DNA from: Saprospiraceae bacterium
Lineage (GTDB): Bacteria > Bacteroidota > Bacteroidia > Chitinophagales > Saprospiraceae
Assembly (NCBI GenBank): GCA_025056735.1
Contig: JANWVR010000056.1
Span: forward strand, 1-38,401
Direction: 5' to 3'
Length of the DNA: 38,401 bases
In this document: positions 1-38,401 of the stretch, piece after piece
Layout of the letters: the number at the start of each line of letters is the position of its first letter
Numbering within the stretch: the first letter of the stretch is position 1
Position numbers and translations under genes: made by a program
The notes under the pieces: model-generated
What the model was told of the DNA's origin: nothing
The model's input: only the letters and a program-made list of their open reading frames with translations
Databases searched by the model: none

Positions 1-517
1 AGAAGGATACAAGTATGTGGACAAGACAGAATACGTGTACCGTCTCGCCACGTTGGGCAAATTTTACTTTTTATCTCGTCCGCGTCGTTTTGGCAAGTCT
101 CTGACGGTTTCGACGTTGCAGGAGTTGTACTCGGGCAGTCGGGAGTTATTCGAGGGTTTGTGGATAGCGGATAGGTGGGACTGGACTCGGCGGCATCCGG
201 TGGTGCGGTTGACACTGACAGGTATCGGTTTTCCGAAGGTAGGTTTAGAGTCGGCGTTGCATTATGCACTCAATAAAGTTTTTGCCGCGCATGGTATTCC
301 GGTTATAGAGAATGGTTCGGCTACACAGAAATTTGATTACCTGCTCAATGCGTTGGCCGACAGGGGTGAGAAGGTGGTCGTGCTGATAGACGAGTACGAT
401 GCGCCGATAGTGCATTACTTGGTAGAAGATATTGATCTGGCGCGCCGCAACCGCGATGAGTTGCGAGAGTTTTACACCGTGATCAAAAACGTCGGCGTGC
501 CCGTGGCAAACCAGTAG
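1..517 (+). pseudogene. AAA-ATPase-like (DUF1703-associated) protein, fragment
   Basis: The frame is open from the left edge and encodes the N-terminal ATPase part of the AAA-ATPase-like family (PF09820 type), which usually ends in a PD-(D/E)XK nuclease-like DUF1703 domain. Visible motifs are a Walker A-like RPRRFGKS and a Walker B-like VVLIDEYD. Family resemblance stops at FYTVIKN; the last eight residues (VGVPVANQ) come from reading the antisense of the neighbouring paralogue, so the C-terminal half is missing. It is about 95% alike the minus-strand gene that follows, but its N-terminal 15 residues differ (KTEYVYRLATLGK here, KTRYIYELASAPM there), so these are two paralogues and not one copy read twice. 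Probably a non-functional remnant. The real start lies outside the window. Confidence 0.75.
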
Positions 518-32556: not shown

Positions 32557-32961
32557 ATGCTGCTCAAAATTGACCATATCGGCATCGCTGTGCGCAACAT
32601 GGCCGACAGCAACGAGCTCTTCCAGCGCCTGTTGGGCGAGGCCCCCTATAAAATCGAAACCGTCGAAACCGAAAAGGTCGCCACCTCCTTCTTCCGTATC
32701 GGCGACAGCAAGATCGAGCTGCTTGAAGCCTCCGACCCGGAAAGCCCCATCGCTAAATACATCGAAAAACGCGGCGAAGGCATCCACCACATCGCCTTCG
32801 AGGTGGACGACATCCGCGCCGCCATCGAACACTTAGAGCAGCAAGGCTTCACGCCCCTCAACCGCGAACCCCGTCGCGGCGCCGACAACAAATGGGTCGC
32901 CTTCTTCCACCCCAAATCGTGCAACGGGGTGCTGGTGGAATTGTGCCAGAGCATTGCGTAA
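32557..32961 (+). CDS. mce: Methylmalonyl-CoA epimerase
   Basis: 134 residues of the vicinal-oxygen-chelate (glyoxalase) family. It opens KIDHIGIAVRNMADS, with the first metal-ligand His, and continues FFRIGDSKIELLEASDP, GEGIHHIAFEVDDI with a second His, and ends VLVELCQSIA with the last Glu ligand, matching mce in length and pattern. The enzyme interconverts (2R)- and (2S)-methylmalonyl-CoA between propionyl-CoA carboxylase and methylmalonyl-CoA mutase. The mutase genes are not in this window. Its last 113 bp (including the stop) reappear at 34240-34352 beyond the Fic gene. Confidence 0.94.
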   Translation: MLLKIDHIGIAVRNMADSNELFQRLLGEAPYKIETVETEKVATSFFRIGDSKIELLEASDPESPIAKYIEKRGEGIHHIAFEVDDIRAAIEHLEQQGFTPLNREPRRGADNKWVAFFHPKSCNGVLVELCQSIA

Positions 32962-32969
32962 GGGCTGCC
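32857..32969 (+). repeat. Direct repeat, copy 1 (3' end of mce)
   Basis: This 113-bp segment covers the last 35 codons of mce and 8 bp beyond. It recurs in the same orientation at 34240-34352 with five mismatches and no gap by my alignment (about 96% identity). The two copies bracket the Fic gene. Confidence 0.9.
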
Positions 32970-33021: not shown

Positions 33022-34104
33022 CTATCCTTTCAGCCGCTGTAAAAGTGCTTGATGGATAAACAAAGTTTCTTTCCAGACGCGATGCGTTCTCAATACGCCA
33101 ATCTCGCACAATCCATGCAAATAGCGGGAGGCCGTAGGGCGTGATACATTCAATTGCTCTACCAGCATTTCAATACGGCAATAGGGTTGTACAAAAAGCA
33201 GCTCCAGCAAATCCTTGCTGTATATCTTCGGCTTCTCAAGTTTTACCTTGTGTGTAGTCTGGTGGAACAGGTCATTTATTTCAACAATCTTTCCAATCGT
33301 TTCCCTGGCTGTTGTCTCAACAGCCCTGATCATATAGAGTATCCATGCCTCCCAATGGCCGTGGACGTGTACCTCTTGCAATAGTCGGTAATAATCCGCT
33401 TTGTGTTCTATAATGTATTTGCTTAGATAAAGCACCGGGCGATCGATCAAACCGTTTAGAATCAGGAAGAGGACGTTTAAGATACGCCCTGTCCGACCAT
33501 TCCCATCGTAAAAGGGGTGGATGCTCTCGAATTGATAATGTTGCACTGCCAATCGGATTAGGGGAGAGAGGTCATCGTTTTGGTTCAAGTATTCCTCTAA
33601 GTTTTTCAACAGCCGAAGGATGCACTCATGATCATCCGGAGGGGTGTAAAGAGTTTCTCCGGTTAAGGCATTCCGGAGCGCGGTACCTGGCAGACGGCGT
33701 ATTCCTGCACTGTTTGCCTCTAAGACCTGCTGAATACTAACTATGGCGTTTGTGCTTAGAAAGCCCTTTTCTTTTAGAAAGCGAAAGCCCATCAACAAAG
33801 CTTCGCGATACCGAAGTACTTCTTTGGTGGCTGGGTCCGCCTCTCTCCCTTTGAGTAGAAGGGCCTGGTAGAGCCTGTCTTGTGTGGTAACGATATTTTC
33901 AATTTCGGAGCTGGCTGCCGCTTCCCTCAAAATAGCGGCGTTGAGCAAGATATCCGGATTGGGCAGCGTGTAGGCCAGCCCTTTCAACTCGCCTAAGGCC
34001 GACGCCGCCCTTTCTGCCTGTCGCAACACGGCAACGGTCTCGATCTTCTCCCTCGGAGGAGGCAACAGGGCGAGTGCGTTGTTGGGCTGCGTTGGATGAA
34101 ACAT
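33022..34104 (-). CDS. Fic family protein (AMP transferase-like)
   Basis: 360 residues. The Fic core motif HPFYDGNGRTGR is complete, with the catalytic His in VQHYQFESIHPF. An N-terminal inhibitory helix is visible (AASSEIENIVTTQDR; S/T-x-x-x-E-N pattern), the type that blocks ATP binding until released. A winged-helix domain closes the protein (VEQLNVSRPTASRYLHGL). Fic proteins of this class transfer AMP to protein hydroxyl groups; the target is unknown. Lower GC than the flanks and the flanking direct repeat of the mce 3' end point to acquisition. A full Bacteroidota promoter abuts the ATG, so the message may be leaderless. Confidence 0.92.
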   Translation of the reverse strand: MFHPTQPNNALALLPPPREKIETVAVLRQAERAASALGELKGLAYTLPNPDILLNAAILREAAASSEIENIVTTQDRLYQALLLKGREADPATKEVLRYREALLMGFRFLKEKGFLSTNAIVSIQQVLEANSAGIRRLPGTALRNALTGETLYTPPDDHECILRLLKNLEEYLNQNDDLSPLIRLAVQHYQFESIHPFYDGNGRTGRILNVLFLILNGLIDRPVLYLSKYIIEHKADYYRLLQEVHVHGHWEAWILYMIRAVETTARETIGKIVEINDLFHQTTHKVKLEKPKIYSKDLLELLFVQPYCRIEMLVEQLNVSRPTASRYLHGLCEIGVLRTHRVWKETLFIHQALLQRLKG

Positions 34105-34140: not shown

Positions 34141-34239
34141 AAAAGCGCCTTTTTTGCCATGACAGGCGCCTCATGTAAAAAGGCTTCATGCGAGCGCGCC
34201 AGTGTAAGACAGGCCTCAAGCCGGCAGTCGAGTGAGCTA

Positions 34240-34352
34240 CTCAACCGCGAACCCCGACGCGGCGCCGACAACAAGTGGGTCGCCTTCTTCCATCCCAAAT
34301 CGTGCAACGGGAGGCTGGTGGAATTGTGCCAGAGCATTGCGTAAGGGCTGCC
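34240..34352 (+). pseudogene. Duplicated 3' fragment of mce (direct repeat, copy 2)
   Basis: It encodes LNREPRRGADNKWVAFFHPK and SCNGRLVELCQSIA, the C-terminus of methylmalonyl-CoA epimerase, with one changed residue (Val to Arg before LVEL). It is identical to copy 1 at 108 of 113 positions. No start, no N-terminal half and no metal-binding first His are present, so it cannot make an epimerase. Confidence 0.85.
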
Positions 34353-34573
34353 TTCTTTGGGGGAGACCCGGGAAATAGGCTTTGAGCGAGGCGAGCCCTC
34401 GCAGCCTCTTGTCTTTGCTTATCCATCCATAGGCATACCTTTGATATTTCAGGAGAATGCCCGGAACCTTCGACGACGAACATCCATTCGTCTCTACCAG
34501 CGCCGGACATCGCGTACTGGTATTCGCCCTGAGGAGTCAGGGACAGGGTCGCCCATCTGTTCAGCAGAGGCCG
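34353..34573. other. Region between the mce fragment and the DGR template repeat
   Basis: About 220 bp lie between the mce remnant and the 21-bp inverted repeat at the end of the template. The minus frame that runs out of the template stays open here (GRPLLNRWATLSLTPQGEYQ, GRDEWMFVVEGSG) but resembles nothing I know. It may be part of the template RNA or the remnant of a coding gene. Confidence 0.35.
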
Positions 34574-34594
34574 TCCGGCCTTATGCATGGACTG
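34574..34594 (+). repeat. 21-bp inverted repeat, arm A (3' edge of template repeat)
   Basis: This 21-bp segment, with ATGCAT in its centre, is the exact reverse complement of 36329-36349, which lies just past the variable repeat. Its last 4 bp overlap the end of the template homology. Confidence 0.85.
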
Positions 34595-34723
34595 CGGGAC
34601 GAACGCCAGGCGGAAGCCAATGTCGTGGTTGCGGTTGTCGGGGGCGTTGGCGTTGCGGTTCGCCGTCCGGCAATTCGCCGCGTCGTTGTTCCACGACCCG
34701 CCGCGGAGCACACGGTTCGTTCC
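34591..34723 (-). repeat. DGR template repeat (TR)
   Basis: 133 bp, on the coding (minus) strand from 34723 to 34591, 21 bp after the stop of the reverse transcriptase gene. It aligns without gaps to 36365-36497. Twelve positions differ and all twelve are A in this copy on the coding strand, marking it as the template. Read in the target frame it encodes NRVLRGGSWNNDAANCRTAN and so on, with many AAC codons placed at exposed positions; random change of the two adenines in AAC gives many residues but never a stop. The RNA copied from it is the substrate of the reverse transcriptase. Confidence 0.95.
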
Positions 34724-34744
34724 CTCGATGAGCGCCCGTTTTTT

Positions 34745-35746
34745 TCAAGGTAGGCGTTCCGCCTGTTGAATGACTTTTCGCCGGAATGCCTTTGCATCGG
34801 CGTGCAGCGTAAACGCTGTCAGCGCTTCAGCGTGGCGCTGATACGTTTTTTGTGTCCATTCACCTTTGTCGAGGCGGAGTACATATTCGCGAGTCTTATA
34901 GATGAAACGCTTGCGGCTTTTCGAGGCGAGGCGGATGCGGTTGGGGTATAGCAGATAGCCTAAAAACGGGAGCCCCCGTGTGTGCTCATTCAAGCAGAAG
35001 GGCTTGAGTGTCAGGTGTAAACGATGCTCTACAAAATCTCGATAGCGGTAACCGGCCTCTAAGAGGGCCGTTTTGTCGGTGTGCCACAGGACCATGTCGT
35101 CCATGTAGCGGATGTACGCCGGGAGGCGTAGCACTTCTCGGGCGAAATGGTCTGCTGCTGACAGATAGTGGTTCGCGAAATACTGACTTGTCAGGTTGCC
35201 GATGGGCACGCCTCGACCCGATGTTACGCAATAGCTGTCAATAATCTGGTCGAAGATGCGCAGCAGACGGGCGTCTTTGAACATGCGGCATAGCTGGCGC
35301 CGCAGCACGCCGTGGTGAATGCTGTCGAAATACTTTCGGACGTCCAGTTTGAGAAACCAGCGGCAACGGCGATGGTGCTCATTAGCCTTCTGAAGCGCTG
35401 CGTGAGTCCCCCGGCCGATACGACTGGCATAGCTATCGGCTGTTTGTACCCGCTCAAAATAGGGATGGCATACATTCATCAGAGCGTGATGCAACACCCG
35501 CTGAGCAAAGGGTGCAGCGCATATCTGCCGCTTCTTAGGGTCGTATATCGTAAAAAAGTGGTAGCCGCCAACTTCCACTTCGCCTGAAAGGAGCTGGCGC
35601 TGCAGCGCCCGCAAATTCTCCTCCAAGTTTTGGCTAAAGGCCCAAACACTCGCCTTGCAGAGTTTGCCCTTGCGCGCTTTGTAATAGGCCATTTCCAGAT
35701 TGCTCCTTTCTGCAATCGCTTCAATCAGATGTCCCTGGCGTTTCAT
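34745..35746 (-). CDS. DGR reverse transcriptase
   Basis: 333 residues from the ATG at 35746, which overlaps the end of the HRDC-like gene by 26 bp (a longer frame begins at 35779). Reverse transcriptase motifs are in order: LKLDVRKYFDSIHHGVLRRQ (motif A), SGRGVPIGNLTSQYFANHYL (the IGNxxSQ motif 4 typical of diversity-generating retroelements), IRYMDDMVLWH (catalytic YMDD) and GLPFLGYLLYP. No maturase or integrase domain is present and the length fits the group. The enzyme copies the template RNA with errors at adenines, and the cDNA replaces the variable repeat. The downstream template lies 21 bp after the stop. Confidence 0.95.
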   Translation of the reverse strand: MKRQGHLIEAIAERSNLEMAYYKARKGKLCKASVWAFSQNLEENLRALQRQLLSGEVEVGGYHFFTIYDPKKRQICAAPFAQRVLHHALMNVCHPYFERVQTADSYASRIGRGTHAALQKANEHHRRCRWFLKLDVRKYFDSIHHGVLRRQLCRMFKDARLLRIFDQIIDSYCVTSGRGVPIGNLTSQYFANHYLSAADHFAREVLRLPAYIRYMDDMVLWHTDKTALLEAGYRYRDFVEHRLHLTLKPFCLNEHTRGLPFLGYLLYPNRIRLASKSRKRFIYKTREYVLRLDKGEWTQKTYQRHAEALTAFTLHADAKAFRRKVIQQAERLP

Positions 35747-36185
35747 CGCTCTCCGGCAGATGGATAAAGTATCGAGCATAACGCTCTACCTTCTTTTCGC
35801 CAATGCCTTTGATGCCCAGCATGGCCTTCTCGGTAATCTGTTCCAACTTCGCCATTTCGGCTAACTCCTCATCGGTAAACACTAAAAAGGCTGAAATACC
35901 TTCCTGCGTGGCGATCTTCTTACGAACCTCGCGCATCCGGGAAAACCGTTTAAATGCCGCTTCATCTAACACCTGGCGATAATCTATTTTACCGGCTTTC
36001 TTCTCCGCTATTTCAGCAGCGCTGCGCTCGATGTAACTCACGCAAAAACACCAGTAAGCGCCGTGATCGTTGCGAATGAGCTGCTTCTCCACTTCCAAAA
36101 TTTTGTTGCTTCTCAGAAAAGCATTCATCTCCTGAACGGCTCCACCGCCATCGCCTATCGGAATCGTAAACAAGCGAATCTGCAT
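35721..36185 (-). CDS. HRDC-like DGR accessory protein
   Basis: 154 residues starting MQIRLFTIPIGDGGGAVQEM. It continues MNAFLRSNKILEVEKQLIRN and YWCFCVSYIE, the N-terminal part I know from accessory proteins found beside some diversity-generating reverse transcriptases. The C-terminal 80 residues resemble an HRDC nucleic-acid-binding domain (LDEAAFKRFSRMREVRKKIA, FTDEELAEMAKLEQITEKAM, GIKGIGEKKVERYARYF). It takes the place of the Avd protein of other systems, helping the enzyme to bind the template RNA. The stop overlaps the start of the reverse transcriptase, so the two are translated together. Confidence 0.85.
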   Translation of the reverse strand: MQIRLFTIPIGDGGGAVQEMNAFLRSNKILEVEKQLIRNDHGAYWCFCVSYIERSAAEIAEKKAGKIDYRQVLDEAAFKRFSRMREVRKKIATQEGISAFLVFTDEELAEMAKLEQITEKAMLGIKGIGEKKVERYARYFIHLPESDETPGTSD

Positions 36186-36201
36186 AAAACCTTATTTTCT
36201 C

Positions 36202-36227
36202 AAAAAAATTCGACCGCCTTCGGCGGT
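36202..36227 (-). terminator. Intrinsic terminator-like hairpin on the minus strand
   Basis: The perfect stem ACCGCC/GGCGGT (36213-36218 and 36222-36227, loop of 3) is followed on the minus strand by a T run at 36202-36208. It lies between the target gene and the HRDC-like gene, 17 to 42 bp before the latter's start, so it may uncouple the two. A -7-like TACCTTTA overlaps its upstream edge. Confidence 0.65.
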
Positions 36228-36270
36228 AAAGGTAAAGTGCTTTTCTGGCGCCATCGCTCCTTGCCGTGAA

Positions 36271-36311
36271 AAATGGGCAGAAGGCTACGTCCCTCCGCCT
36301 TCTTCCCATTT
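36271..36311. other. Long hairpin downstream of the DGR variable repeat
   Basis: Two 15-bp arms (36271-36285 and 36297-36311) pair at 14 of 15 positions around an 11-nt loop. On the minus strand the hairpin starts 43 bp after the target stop codon and is followed by five T, so it may be a terminator. It could also be the structure that favours retrohoming downstream of variable repeats in other elements. Confidence 0.7.
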
Positions 36312-36328
36312 CCCCCGGCAACTCGCTC

Positions 36329-36349
36329 CAGTCCATGCATAAGGCCGGA
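36329..36349 (+). repeat. 21-bp inverted repeat, arm B (just past the variable repeat)
   Basis: Exact reverse complement of 34574-34594. It lies 15 bp beyond the end of the variable repeat and just after the target stop, whereas arm A touches the template end directly. Confidence 0.85.
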
Positions 36350-36353
36350 AAGG

Positions 36354-38401
36354 CTATCTGCTAAACTGCGGGACGAACGCCAGGCGGAAGCCAATGACGC
36401 GGTTGCGGGCGACGGGGGCGTTGGCGTTGCGGAGCGCCGTCCGGCAATTCGCCGCGTCGTTGAACCACGACCCGCCGCGGAGCACACGGTGCGAGCCGCT
36501 TTCTGGGCCAGCAGGATTCTCTACGAGACCTTGCTCCTGGCAAAGGCTGTAGTAATGCGGGTCATACCAGTCCTCGCACCACTCCCACACGTTGCCGCTC
36601 ATGTCGAACAAGCCGAGGCAGTTGGGCTTCAGTCGGCCAACGGGTTGAACGCCGACGTGGTTTCTATCGGCGCCGCTGTCCCGAAATTTTTCAAAATGCC
36701 AGGCGACTTCGGCCGCTTCATCGCTGCCGGCAAACTCAAATTCCCGGACTACGCTGCCGTCTTCATCCCGACGCCCTGACAACGGACCGCCGATGGCAGC
36801 GTATTCCCACTCGGCTTCCGTGGGTAGGCGATAGGCGTCTCCTGTCTTCTGGCTGAGCCAGTCGCAATAGGCTTTTGCGTCGTGCCAGCTGACGTGGACG
36901 ACTGGATGCCGGGCAGAGCGTTCATCCATCGGATAGCCATACGCATCGCAAGTCCAGTCTACGCCAGTCCGAAGGAAATCGGTAAGGATATCGCCGCGCC
37001 AGATAGCGACCGGGCTCCATCCTTCTCGCTCTGCCTGAGTAACGTAGCCCGTCTCGAGCACAAAGCGGGCAAATTCACCCACCGTTACGGGATACTTGCC
37101 GATACAGAAATCCGCGACTTCCACTAAGTGGCAGGGCATCTCATCAGGATTGGCGGCGGGAGCGTCACTCTCGCTGCCCATCCAGAAGCGTCCGCCGGCC
37201 ACCTTTACCATTTCTGGGAACGCGGGAGCGTTTTTGGCCAATCGGGCCACTTTTTCTTCTCGGACGATGACCTCGCCCCGAAAATTTTTCGGAACTGCGG
37301 ATGCCTCCTGCCGGGTCGAGATGACGATGCGCTGGAGCGAAGCGGGCAGTTTGGACAGACGCAAGCCCGGATTACCTTCTAAGTGAAGGGTTTTGAGTTG
37401 GGTAAAGTTTTCCAGCGTCAGTTCACCCTGCAAATCACAATGAGCCAGATTCAACTCCTGCACCTCCCCGGCATAGGGAATGTATTTGAAAAAGCTGAGG
37501 TCGGCCGGATGTCGGCTCCGGATAGTCAGCCTGCCTTCGCTTTGCTGCAAACGCGAGAAAAAATCGTAGAAACCCGTCTCGACTTTCTGGGATGCGTAGT
37601 CGTACCAGCTGGAATAGACCTTCTTGATAACATCCTCTTGCGACGGCTCCGCGCTTTCGCCAAAGGCGCCCCGAAAGAATTCCTCTCTTGACCAATCGCT
37701 GTCCAACAGCAAAGAGACTTCGCTCCAGTAGGGCAAGAACTGCAGCCATCGGATTTCTTCGGCAAACAGGTGTCGAAAGCGCAATTTATGGAAGGGGAAG
37801 GCCGGCGCTTTTTCCACGACGTCTTCCTGAAAGAAGAGGTCTCGCAGGCAAAGGAACTCTGCAAATGAACGGTGTATGAAGTGGTACTGGCCGTTGGTCT
37901 CGCAGAAGTAGAAGAACTCAAGCAGGGCGGTTGTCATTACATCGTGTTTTTCGCAAAGACTTTGGAGGAAATCGTCGCCAGCGGTTCCGCGTTCTTCTTC
38001 TATGAGATAGCGGGCCAGATGGGTCAGGCAGTTGTTGTGGGCATCATCCGGTTCGCCTTTGGCGAGTAGCAGCGAGAAAGTATCCCAGGTGCTGTTGGAG
38101 AGTCCTATGTTTTCGAGCTGACAGAATGCCTGCACGGGTATGGGTAGTCGCGTATCTAAGGAGAAGGAAAGCTGGCCTGGCGGAGGTACCCGAGCGCGGT
38201 TCGATGAGTAAAGGCTTCGGAAGTACTTCACCTCGCCCATCTGCTGGTAAAAAATTCGAACATCTTCGTAATCATCAAAAGGAAATTCGTTTTCAGGAAT
38301 CCGCCCCTCATAAAGCAGTTGTGCAAAGAAAAATTCTTTGAACGTGCGGTGCGCGAAGTAGTAGTATCCCGCCTCGTTGCGCTTTAGGAGCGACCGGGCG
38401 C
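36354..38401 (-). CDS. DGR target: STAND/NACHT-like NTPase arm, leucine-rich segment and FGE-sulfatase/C-type-lectin domain (partial)
   Basis: The frame is open to the right edge, so the N-terminus is missing; an internal Met at 38240 is not the true start. The visible part begins with YYYFAHRTFKEFFFAQLLYE and later repeats the theme in YHFIHRSFAEFLCLRDLFFQ, the helical-arm motif found after the ATPase of NACHT/STAND proteins. A short leucine-rich stretch follows (VQELNLAHCDLQGELTLENF, TQLKTLHLEGNPGLRLSKLP). The C-terminal 270 residues are a formylglycine-generating-enzyme-like domain (VKVAGGRFWMGSESDA, RLPTEAEWEYAA, LFDMSGNVWEWCEDWYD, VLRGGSWFNDAANCRT) that folds as a C-type lectin. Its last 45 residues are the variable repeat. 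The likely role is a cytoplasmic sensor with a diversified ligand-binding face. The ATPase itself lies outside the window. Confidence 0.92.
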   Translation of the reverse strand, partial: ARSLLKRNEAGYYYFAHRTFKEFFFAQLLYEGRIPENEFPFDDYEDVRIFYQQMGEVKYFRSLYSSNRARVPPPGQLSFSLDTRLPIPVQAFCQLENIGLSNSTWDTFSLLLAKGEPDDAHNNCLTHLARYLIEEERGTAGDDFLQSLCEKHDVMTTALLEFFYFCETNGQYHFIHRSFAEFLCLRDLFFQEDVVEKAPAFPFHKLRFRHLFAEEIRWLQFLPYWSEVSLLLDSDWSREEFFRGAFGESAEPSQEDVIKKVYSSWYDYASQKVETGFYDFFSRLQQSEGRLTIRSRHPADLSFFKYIPYAGEVQELNLAHCDLQGELTLENFTQLKTLHLEGNPGLRLSKLPASLQRIVISTRQEASAVPKNFRGEVIVREEKVARLAKNAPAFPEMVKVAGGRFWMGSESDAPAANPDEMPCHLVEVADFCIGKYPVTVGEFARFVLETGYVTQAEREGWSPVAIWRGDILTDFLRTGVDWTCDAYGYPMDERSARHPVVHVSWHDAKAYCDWLSQKTGDAYRLPTEAEWEYAAIGGPLSGRRDEDGSVVREFEFAGSDEAAEVAWHFEKFRDSGADRNHVGVQPVGRLKPNCLGLFDMSGNVWEWCEDWYDPHYYSLCQEQGLVENPAGPESGSHRVLRGGSWFNDAANCRTALRNANAPVARNRVIGFRLAFVPQFSR
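36365..36497 (-). repeat. DGR variable repeat (VR)
   Basis: 133 bp at the 3' end of the target gene, on the coding strand from 36497 to 36365, aligned without gaps to the template at 34591-34723. Twelve positions differ, all where the template has A: AA to TT, AA to CT, A to T, A to G and A to C are all seen. They change eight residues (Thr to Ser, Asn to His, Asn to Phe, Asn to Leu, Asp to Val, Asn to Ala, His to Arg, Asp to Val) and one codon silently. The fixed residues between them are the structural core of the lectin fold. Confidence 0.95.

What the first reader, a model, noticed from the sequence alone, without database searches (positions are those of the whole stretch)
34591..36497. 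Complete diversity-generating retroelement with adenine-only TR/VR differences
The 133-bp segments 34591-34723 and 36365-36497 align without gaps and differ at 12 positions. On the coding strand every one is an adenine in the copy next to the reverse transcriptase, and the VR has T, G or C there. No non-adenine change is seen. Chance cannot reasonably give this. Seen directly: the repeats, the YMDD reverse transcriptase with IGNxxSQ and the HRDC-like gene between the two repeats. Established: this is the hallmark of mutagenic retrohoming. Inference: the element is or was recently active, since no neutral substitutions have accumulated.
Basis: partly seen in the sequence, partly recalled or inferred. 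Interest (0 to 1): 0.9.

Follow-up and report, generated by a model that had tools for sequence, protein, structure and literature searches.

The report
Mutating retroelement with RNA guide arm
The window holds a genuine gene-diversifying retroelement, and next to its template lies a stretch that can base-pair with the DNA just behind the target site, a feature kept by changing both sides together in many related elements, which suggests how these elements find their target.

Summary
It is an HRDC-type diversity-generating retroelement (DGR), a known kind. In relatives this complementarity recurs with other sequences: 44 of 59 HRDC-type TR/VR clusters, 0 of 21 Avd-type, 2 of 69 untyped. Pairing beyond the anchor is 81% (shuffled 49%, maximum 57% in 2000). 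Mismatching transitions are 39 to 4 of the G-U-compatible kind. So the TR RNA's 3' flank probably base-pairs with the target's coding strand just 3' of the VR; the VR hairpin known from BPP-1 is absent here. A conserved RNA element (GUAG/CGAA) follows; Rfam has no match. I found no description of the pairing in the papers I could see, but key DGR papers were not held. That it guides retrohoming, and how, is inference; the VR-proximal half of the pairing is weak.

The parts
34591..34723 (-). Template repeat (TR), 27 adenines
36365..36497 (-). Variable repeat (VR), 3' end of the target gene; 12 changes, all at template adenines
36354..38399 (-). Target gene, 5' end cut by the contig end; C-terminal FGE-sulfatase (C-type-lectin-like) domain
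35721..36185 (-). Accessory protein with HRDC domain (154 aa); predicted N-terminal strand-helix-strand-strand part plus HRDC fold
34745..35779 (-). Reverse transcriptase, YMDD, IGNLTSQ
34574..34594 (-). Arm a: last 4 nt of the TR plus 17 nt of its 3' flank, perfect 21-nt complement of arm a'; weaker, gapped pairing continues to about 34556
36329..36349 (-). Arm a': 21 nt, starting 15 nt behind the end of the VR homology and lying after the target's stop codon; the whole stretch 36329-36364 can pair with the TR flank with gaps
34559..34563 (-). Box TGAAC; similar boxes lie 26-32 nt behind the TR end in 40 relatives; here it can pair with the TR end (one mismatch) and the VR end (one G-T wobble); proposed priming box
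34456..34511 (-). 3' RNA element: 9-bp stem enclosing GGUAG and UCGAA

Best explanation
This is an HRDC-type diversity-generating retroelement that mutates the C-terminal face of an FGE-sulfatase-fold protein. Its TR RNA carries, directly behind the TR, an arm of up to about 36 nt complementary to the coding strand directly behind the VR. I propose that this arm base-pairs with the target and brings the TR RNA and its cDNA to the VR. Shown by sequence: the adenine-only TR/VR differences; the complementarity, its covariation, its G-U bias and its concentration in the HRDC lineage. Inferred: that the pairing occurs between TR RNA and target DNA, and that it guides homing. More speculative: cDNA is primed inside the arm (at the GAAC box, as BPP-1 primes from an adenine in its spacer), so that arm and cDNA form one continuous RNA-DNA strand complementary to VR plus the DNA behind it, which anneals to single-stranded target, for example at the replication fork.
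For: Observation. Cassette. Perfect 21-nt inverted pair in the window, about 8e-6 such pairs expected in 8.4 kb. In relatives: score >=11 in 44 of 59 HRDC clusters, 0 of 21 Avd, 2 of 69 untyped; cross pairs of all clusters reach it in 0.93%. Anchored test of positions +4..+15 in 43 of 59 HRDC clusters: 81.4% paired; 2000 permutations mean 48.9%, max 57.2%; slid by 1-3 nt 35-47%; swapped with the nearest RT relative 65.5% (Watson-Crick 55.0% against 74.8%). Transitions within the pairing in 45 clusters: 39 of G-U type against 4 of the opposite type, p 3e-8; per locus 16 against 3, p 0.004. Multi-VR loci L037 (2), L038 (2), L045 (4), L055 (2): all ten VRs carry a'. Conserved 3' RNA element. BPP-1: spacer segment AGGTGGTCA is a perfect complement of VR TGACCACCT, while TR TGCCCATCA differs at 3 of the 9 positions; PMC3240598 (passages) says that the mismatched 21 bp of IMH set the direction of transfer.
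Against: 15 of 59 HRDC clusters do not reach the threshold, among them the four multi-VR loci L057, L067, L131 and L132. The VR-proximal half of the pairing is weak and gapped: with strict scoring its end lies within -6..+2 of the VR boundary in 17 of 44, beyond +2 in 23, inside the VR in 4; looser scoring put it within -5..+2 in 9 of 44. The GAAC box pairs worse with the VR than with the TR in the strong set: VR +1 paired in 22 of 40 and +2 in 17 of 40, TR +1 and +2 in 38 of 40 each. The longer-window test reaches p<=0.05 in 38 of 59 HRDC clusters, 3 of 19 Avd, 0 of 9 Avd/HRDC-ambiguous and 5 of 62 untyped (first typing); the VR-versus-TR comparison gave Avd 9 to 6. An exact-match test at the VR boundary was negative for the strong set (2 of 44 against 10% in cross pairs). 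Self-hairpins (stem >=7) are rare in all groups by my criterion (HRDC 1 of 59, Avd 4 of 21, untyped 4 of 69), so 'pairing instead of a hairpin' rests on little. PMC12875486 (passages) changed primase activity without effect on homing, which they call inconclusive. Sequence alone cannot tell RNA-DNA from RNA-RNA pairing. Clusters share ancestry, so counts are not independent.
Confidence: 0.72

Rival explanations
1. RNA-RNA pairing: the TR RNA pairs with the 3' end of the target mRNA (same operon), for processing, regulation or tethering of the RT complex to the nascent transcript, not with target DNA.
For: a' lies behind the stop codon and would be transcribed; VR, HRDC, RT and TR lie on one strand in one direction; the G-U bias fits RNA-RNA at least as well.
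Against: In four multi-VR loci each VR has its own a', including VRs about 4.5 kb behind the TR in L037 and L038, and in BPP-1 the element behind the VR works at DNA level (PMC3240598, passages). Neither excludes it.
Confidence: 0.2
2. Target-primed variant: the coding strand is nicked at the 3' end of a', and its 3'-OH, paired to the TR RNA at the TR boundary, primes cDNA synthesis into the TR.
For: Pairing is best next to the TR boundary and starts at TR -1 (median) in 44 clusters. TPRT at the VR was proposed for BPP-1 (PMC3240598, passages).
Against: Here the cDNA would be attached in inverted orientation and form a fold-back with the VR that needs further resolution (reasoning); I saw no nuclease gene in the cassette; BPP-1 cDNA is primed by an adenine of the RNA spacer (PMC12875486, passages).
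Confidence: 0.12
3. Relic: TR and VR descend from a copy that included one arm of an ancestral hairpin behind the VR; the complementarity has no function now.
For: Arm a begins where the TR/VR homology ends, and some other DGRs (for example L078, L079, L081) have self-hairpins behind the VR.
Against: Pairs change on both sides together across lineages, and mismatches are biased to G-U.
Confidence: 0.04
4. Ordinary DGR with a chance inverted repeat.
For: All cassette parts are standard.
Against: Expected 8e-6 such pairs in 8.4 kb and recurrence in 44 of 59 clusters.
Confidence: 0.01

Closest known systems
HRDC-accessory DGRs such as those of Treponema denticola (PMC4891356, passages)
   Same: RT plus HRDC accessory gene, adenine-specific TR/VR
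   Different: TR placed behind the RT here; TR-flank/VR-flank pairing is not mentioned in the passages I saw; the Treponema sp. locus found here (L064) shows only a 7-nt pairing of the TR flank with the VR end
BPP-1 DGR of Bordetella phage (PMC3240598, PMC12875486, passages)
   Same: Adenine mutagenesis, TR to VR transfer, an element directly behind the VR, structured RNA behind the TR
   Different: Avd instead of HRDC; an 8-bp hairpin/cruciform within the VR flank, where the HRDC lineage has pairing with the TR flank
DGR-diversified conflict-system sensors (PMC10907252, PMC7159879, passages)
   Same: NTPase conflict systems with a hypervariable FGE/C-type-lectin domain; relatives L034 and L040 have EAD11, nSTAND1 and FGE genes in a row
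   Different: Those passages concern Thiohalocapsa, cyanobacteria and gammaproteobacteria; the window's target is cut, so its N-terminal domains are unknown
Group II intron target recognition by EBS/IBS pairing (recalled)
   Same: RNA of a retroelement pairs with the sense strand of the target DNA
   Different: No ribozyme; the arm lies 3' of a template and the outcome is copy-in of mutated cDNA

Membership tests
Diversity-generating retroelement | Two near-identical repeats differing only or mainly at template adenines | tested here: met
   12 of 12 differences at template A
Diversity-generating retroelement | RT with YxDD and the DGR motif IGNxxSQ (motifs recalled) | tested here: met
   YMDD and IGNLTSQ; I193 to Q199 invariant in an alignment of 10 RTs, the window's included
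Diversity-generating retroelement | VR at the 3' end of a gene with C-type-lectin/FGE fold | tested here: met
   FGE-sulfatase E 2.8e-64 at residues 395-674, which covers most of the VR
Diversity-generating retroelement | Accessory gene (Avd, HRDC or other) | tested here: met
   HRDC E 4.7e-16
Diversity-generating retroelement | Hairpin/cruciform of 7-10 bp behind the VR (described for phage DGRs; not required of all DGRs) | tested here: not met
   Longest perfect stem 3 bp with loop 3-9 in 60 nt behind the VR
Diversity-generating retroelement | Adenine-specific variation within the population | not testable with these tools
   No reads; nearest RT relative found is 75% identical
HRDC-type DGR lineage | RT groups with RTs of HRDC-carrying DGRs | tested here: met
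   In the tip order of a midpoint-rooted FastTree of 133 RTs all HRDC-typed tips are contiguous (with one untyped tip, L066, among them); support values were not examined
Rfam RNA family | Match to any Rfam 15 family | tested here: not met
   0 matches at E<=1 in 34200-36600

The most novel reading that the evidence does not exclude
DGRs use RNA-guided retrohoming: the RNA segment behind the TR, inside which the cDNA is primed, is complementary to the target, so that primer RNA and mutated cDNA form one strand matching the target's coding strand across the VR border. In the HRDC lineage the guide is up to 36 nt and is reprogrammed in evolution; in BPP-1 it is 9 nt within IMH, and its poorer match to the TR explains why information flows from TR to VR only.
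Probability: 0.3. Interest if true: 0.9.

Novelty: new variant of a known kind. Interest (0 to 1): 0.72.

Why it matters
How DGR cDNA finds and enters its target is described as unknown in a 2026 study (PMC12875486, passages). A covarying pairing between the template RNA's flank and the target gives a direct, testable proposal for the HRDC lineage: compensatory mutation should break and restore homing. If right, it also gives a simple rule to predict the targets of such elements and a possible reason why the template itself is not mutated.

Tried and rejected
Chance or artefact: rejected by cross-pair, permutation, slide and nearest-relative controls. Direct repeats, 5' flanks and mixed flanks gave no comparable signal (longest 12 nt apart from two split alignments, L052 and L061). 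A hairpin within the VR flank of the window: absent. Remote VRs in the own genome: none found; one 23-nt match on another contig (C23) corresponds to the TR's 3' part and was not examined further. In the genome of L045 nine places matched its TR: the TR, its four VRs, two reverse-strand matches at a' sites, and two places on other contigs (C225, C159) that I did not examine. Rfam: no match. PADLOC: the target ORF has no hit; the HRDC protein's hits are DpdF models and the RT's best is a generic RT model. An exact-match test at the VR boundary did not support a sharp junction for the strong set, and loose alignment over long windows was uninformative about the ends. In one search the box was located by a motif that forces C at its last position and A or C before it, so the pair at -1 and the mismatch at 0 with the TR are partly built in, and +1 is restricted too; +2 and +3 (TR paired in 38 and 33 of 40) are free of this; three of the 44 strong clusters had no box and one no AG anchor. 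The MAFFT alignment of the 3' RNA domain (22 sequences) misaligned the 3' part between two subgroups, so the 3' element was tested by anchored stems. Extension to Avd-type DGRs: weak. The first accessory typing counted any hit in the locus; the stricter one (same strand, near the TR) is. The Fisher p of 1.1e-10 refers to the first typing (44 of 59 against 1 of 28), as do.

Papers: searches. Seen as passages only: PMC3240598, PMC10907252, PMC12875486, PMC4891356, PMC3521204, PMC7159879, PMC10743442, PMC10053308, PMC4372165, PMC6642488, PMC8867640; PMC8144416 was searched for six terms with no occurrence. None of what I saw describes TR-flank/VR-flank complementarity. Not held: the 2018 DGR survey of Wu et al., two mechanistic papers of Handa et al., Naorem et al. 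2017, Arambula et al. 2013 and Guo et al. 2008 (authors recalled for those not cited in papers I saw), so it may be in print there. The BPP-1 details A56 and G117 are recalled, not read.
Full report
CHECK. The two 133-bp segments differ at 12 positions, all template adenines on the coding strand (P 4.5e-10). On the minus strand the order is target gene with VR, HRDC gene, RT, TR. Pfam confirms FGE-sulfatase, HRDC and RVT_1. The window is the whole of contig C106 of a 3.7-Mb genome, and the target's 5' end runs off it. The RT's nearest named relatives are in Saprospiraceae MAGs (75 and 74% identity). A DNA search found one VR for this TR in the held genome. RT matches, own genome included: 21 of 150 genomes of the family (E<=1e-20), 28 of 396 of the order and 39 of 395 of the phylum (E<=1e-60), 20 of 42 of the genus (E<=1e-20).

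WHAT WAS MISSED. A repeat scan gave a perfect 21-nt inverted repeat between 34574-34594 and 36329-36349. The first is the last 4 nt of the TR and its 3' flank; the second begins 15 nt behind the end of the VR homology, after the target's stop codon and before the HRDC gene. In relatives found by RT similarity the same geometry recurs with other sequences.

STATISTICS. From 249 sequences a detector gave 213 TR/VR pairs in 191 of them, 182 distinct, 180 with enough flank, in 149 flank clusters. With accessory genes typed near the TR: 59 HRDC, 21 Avd, 69 untyped. Complementarity score >=11 in 44, 0 and 2 of these; cross pairs 0.93%. The two untyped cases are L072 (17 nt exact, also a 9-bp self-hairpin) and L029. 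An anchored test that leaves out the anchor positions could use 43 of 59 HRDC clusters (16 were dropped for lack of an anchor, among them the window itself, whose TR lacks the AGC anchor): 81.4% paired at +4..+15 against 48.9% in 2000 permutations (max 57.2%), 35-47% when slid, and 65.5% with the VR flank of the nearest RT relative (Watson-Crick 55.0 against 74.8%). In 45 clusters with a pairing, mismatches of the transition type are 39 G-U-compatible against 4 not, with 30 transversions; L045 and L055 each count twice there. This is expected if the TR's sense RNA pairs with the VR's coding strand, and not if the complementary strands do.

EXTENT. Gapped alignments suggest pairing over the whole stretch from the VR end to about +36, but with strict scoring only the TR-proximal half is firm. 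In the window the gapped alignment covers TR -4..34 against VR -4..36 (both windows were clipped at -4).

SECOND BOX. A GAAC-like box sits 26-32 nt behind the TR end in 40 of 44 strong clusters. It can pair with the TR end with one mismatch, with some covariation (GCTCA/TGAAC, GCTTA/TAAAC, GCTCG/CGACC, GCACA/TGTAC), and at +0, where the TR does not pair in 39 of 40, the VR pairs in 36 of 40. Against a perfect box-VR fit: VR +1 pairs in 22, +2 in 17 and +3 in 35 of 40 (see the caveat on how the box was found). Two loci below the threshold show a short complement of the VR end: L064 (HRDC) GCAGAAC and L066 (untyped) TCCACCGAAC. In BPP-1, AGGTGGTCA of the spacer is the exact complement of VR TGACCACCT, from which the TR differs at 3 of 9. 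Recalled: its last A is the priming A56. A symmetric comparison of spacer pairing with VR against TR favours VR 26 to 7 (strong HRDC, n 41), 8 to 2 (weak HRDC, n 14), 22 to 9 (untyped, n 31) and 9 to 6 (Avd, n 15), ties left out; 48 of 149 clusters had no discriminating position and were dropped.

3' RNA ELEMENT. About TR+80 to +165 lies a stem of about 9 bp around (A/G)GUAG and CGAA; stems >=7 bp with these anchors in 28 of 53 HRDC loci, 3 of 21 Avd, 2 of 59 untyped; 28 of the 35 HRDC loci with anchors, against 14% for cross-combined arms (examples). No Rfam family matches.

PROTEINS. The HRDC protein models with mean pLDDT 80.6 and pTM 0.48: the C-terminal part matches RecQ HRDC domains (E 2.3e-4), the N-terminal strand-helix-strand-strand part has no convincing match in the 50 listed. 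In L034 and L040 the target stands behind EAD11 and nSTAND1 genes, as in the conflict systems described in PMC7159879 and PMC10907252 (passages).

MECHANISM. Shown: the complementarity, its covariation, its wobble bias and its lineage. Inferred: RNA-DNA pairing that guides homing. Speculative: a continuous RNA-cDNA strand annealing to single-stranded target; PMC12875486 (passages) reports higher efficiency when the strand complementary to the cDNA is the lagging-strand template, calls the integration step unknown, and saw no effect of altered primase activity, which it calls inconclusive.

NOVELTY. The element is a DGR. The pairing is not in any passage that I saw, but several key papers were not held, so its novelty is provisional.

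Noticed in passing
32857-32969 and 34240-34352: A 113-bp direct duplication (96%) covering the 3' end of the small gene 32557-32961 (glyoxalase/epimerase-like, by recall, no family search) flanks a SoFic-type Fic gene (33022-34104), as if that segment had been inserted or duplicated next to the DGR.
   Followed up: no
L072: A DGR from a Riflebacteria MAG whose RT groups away from the HRDC lineage also shows a 17-nt exact TR-flank/VR-flank complement; accessory gene not identified.
   Followed up: no
L034:3269-7424, L040:1403-7396: EAD11 (in L034 with SIR2-like), nSTAND1 and FGE target genes upstream of the relatives' DGRs, which looks like a diversified conflict system (in L040 a further ORF lies between them).
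   Followed up: partly
35721-36185: The HRDC accessory protein has a conserved N-terminal strand-helix-strand-strand part without a convincing match among solved structures.
   Followed up: partly
genomes behind L115 and L007 (G697, G093): Single genomes of the window's family with four DGR-like RT matches each.
   Followed up: no
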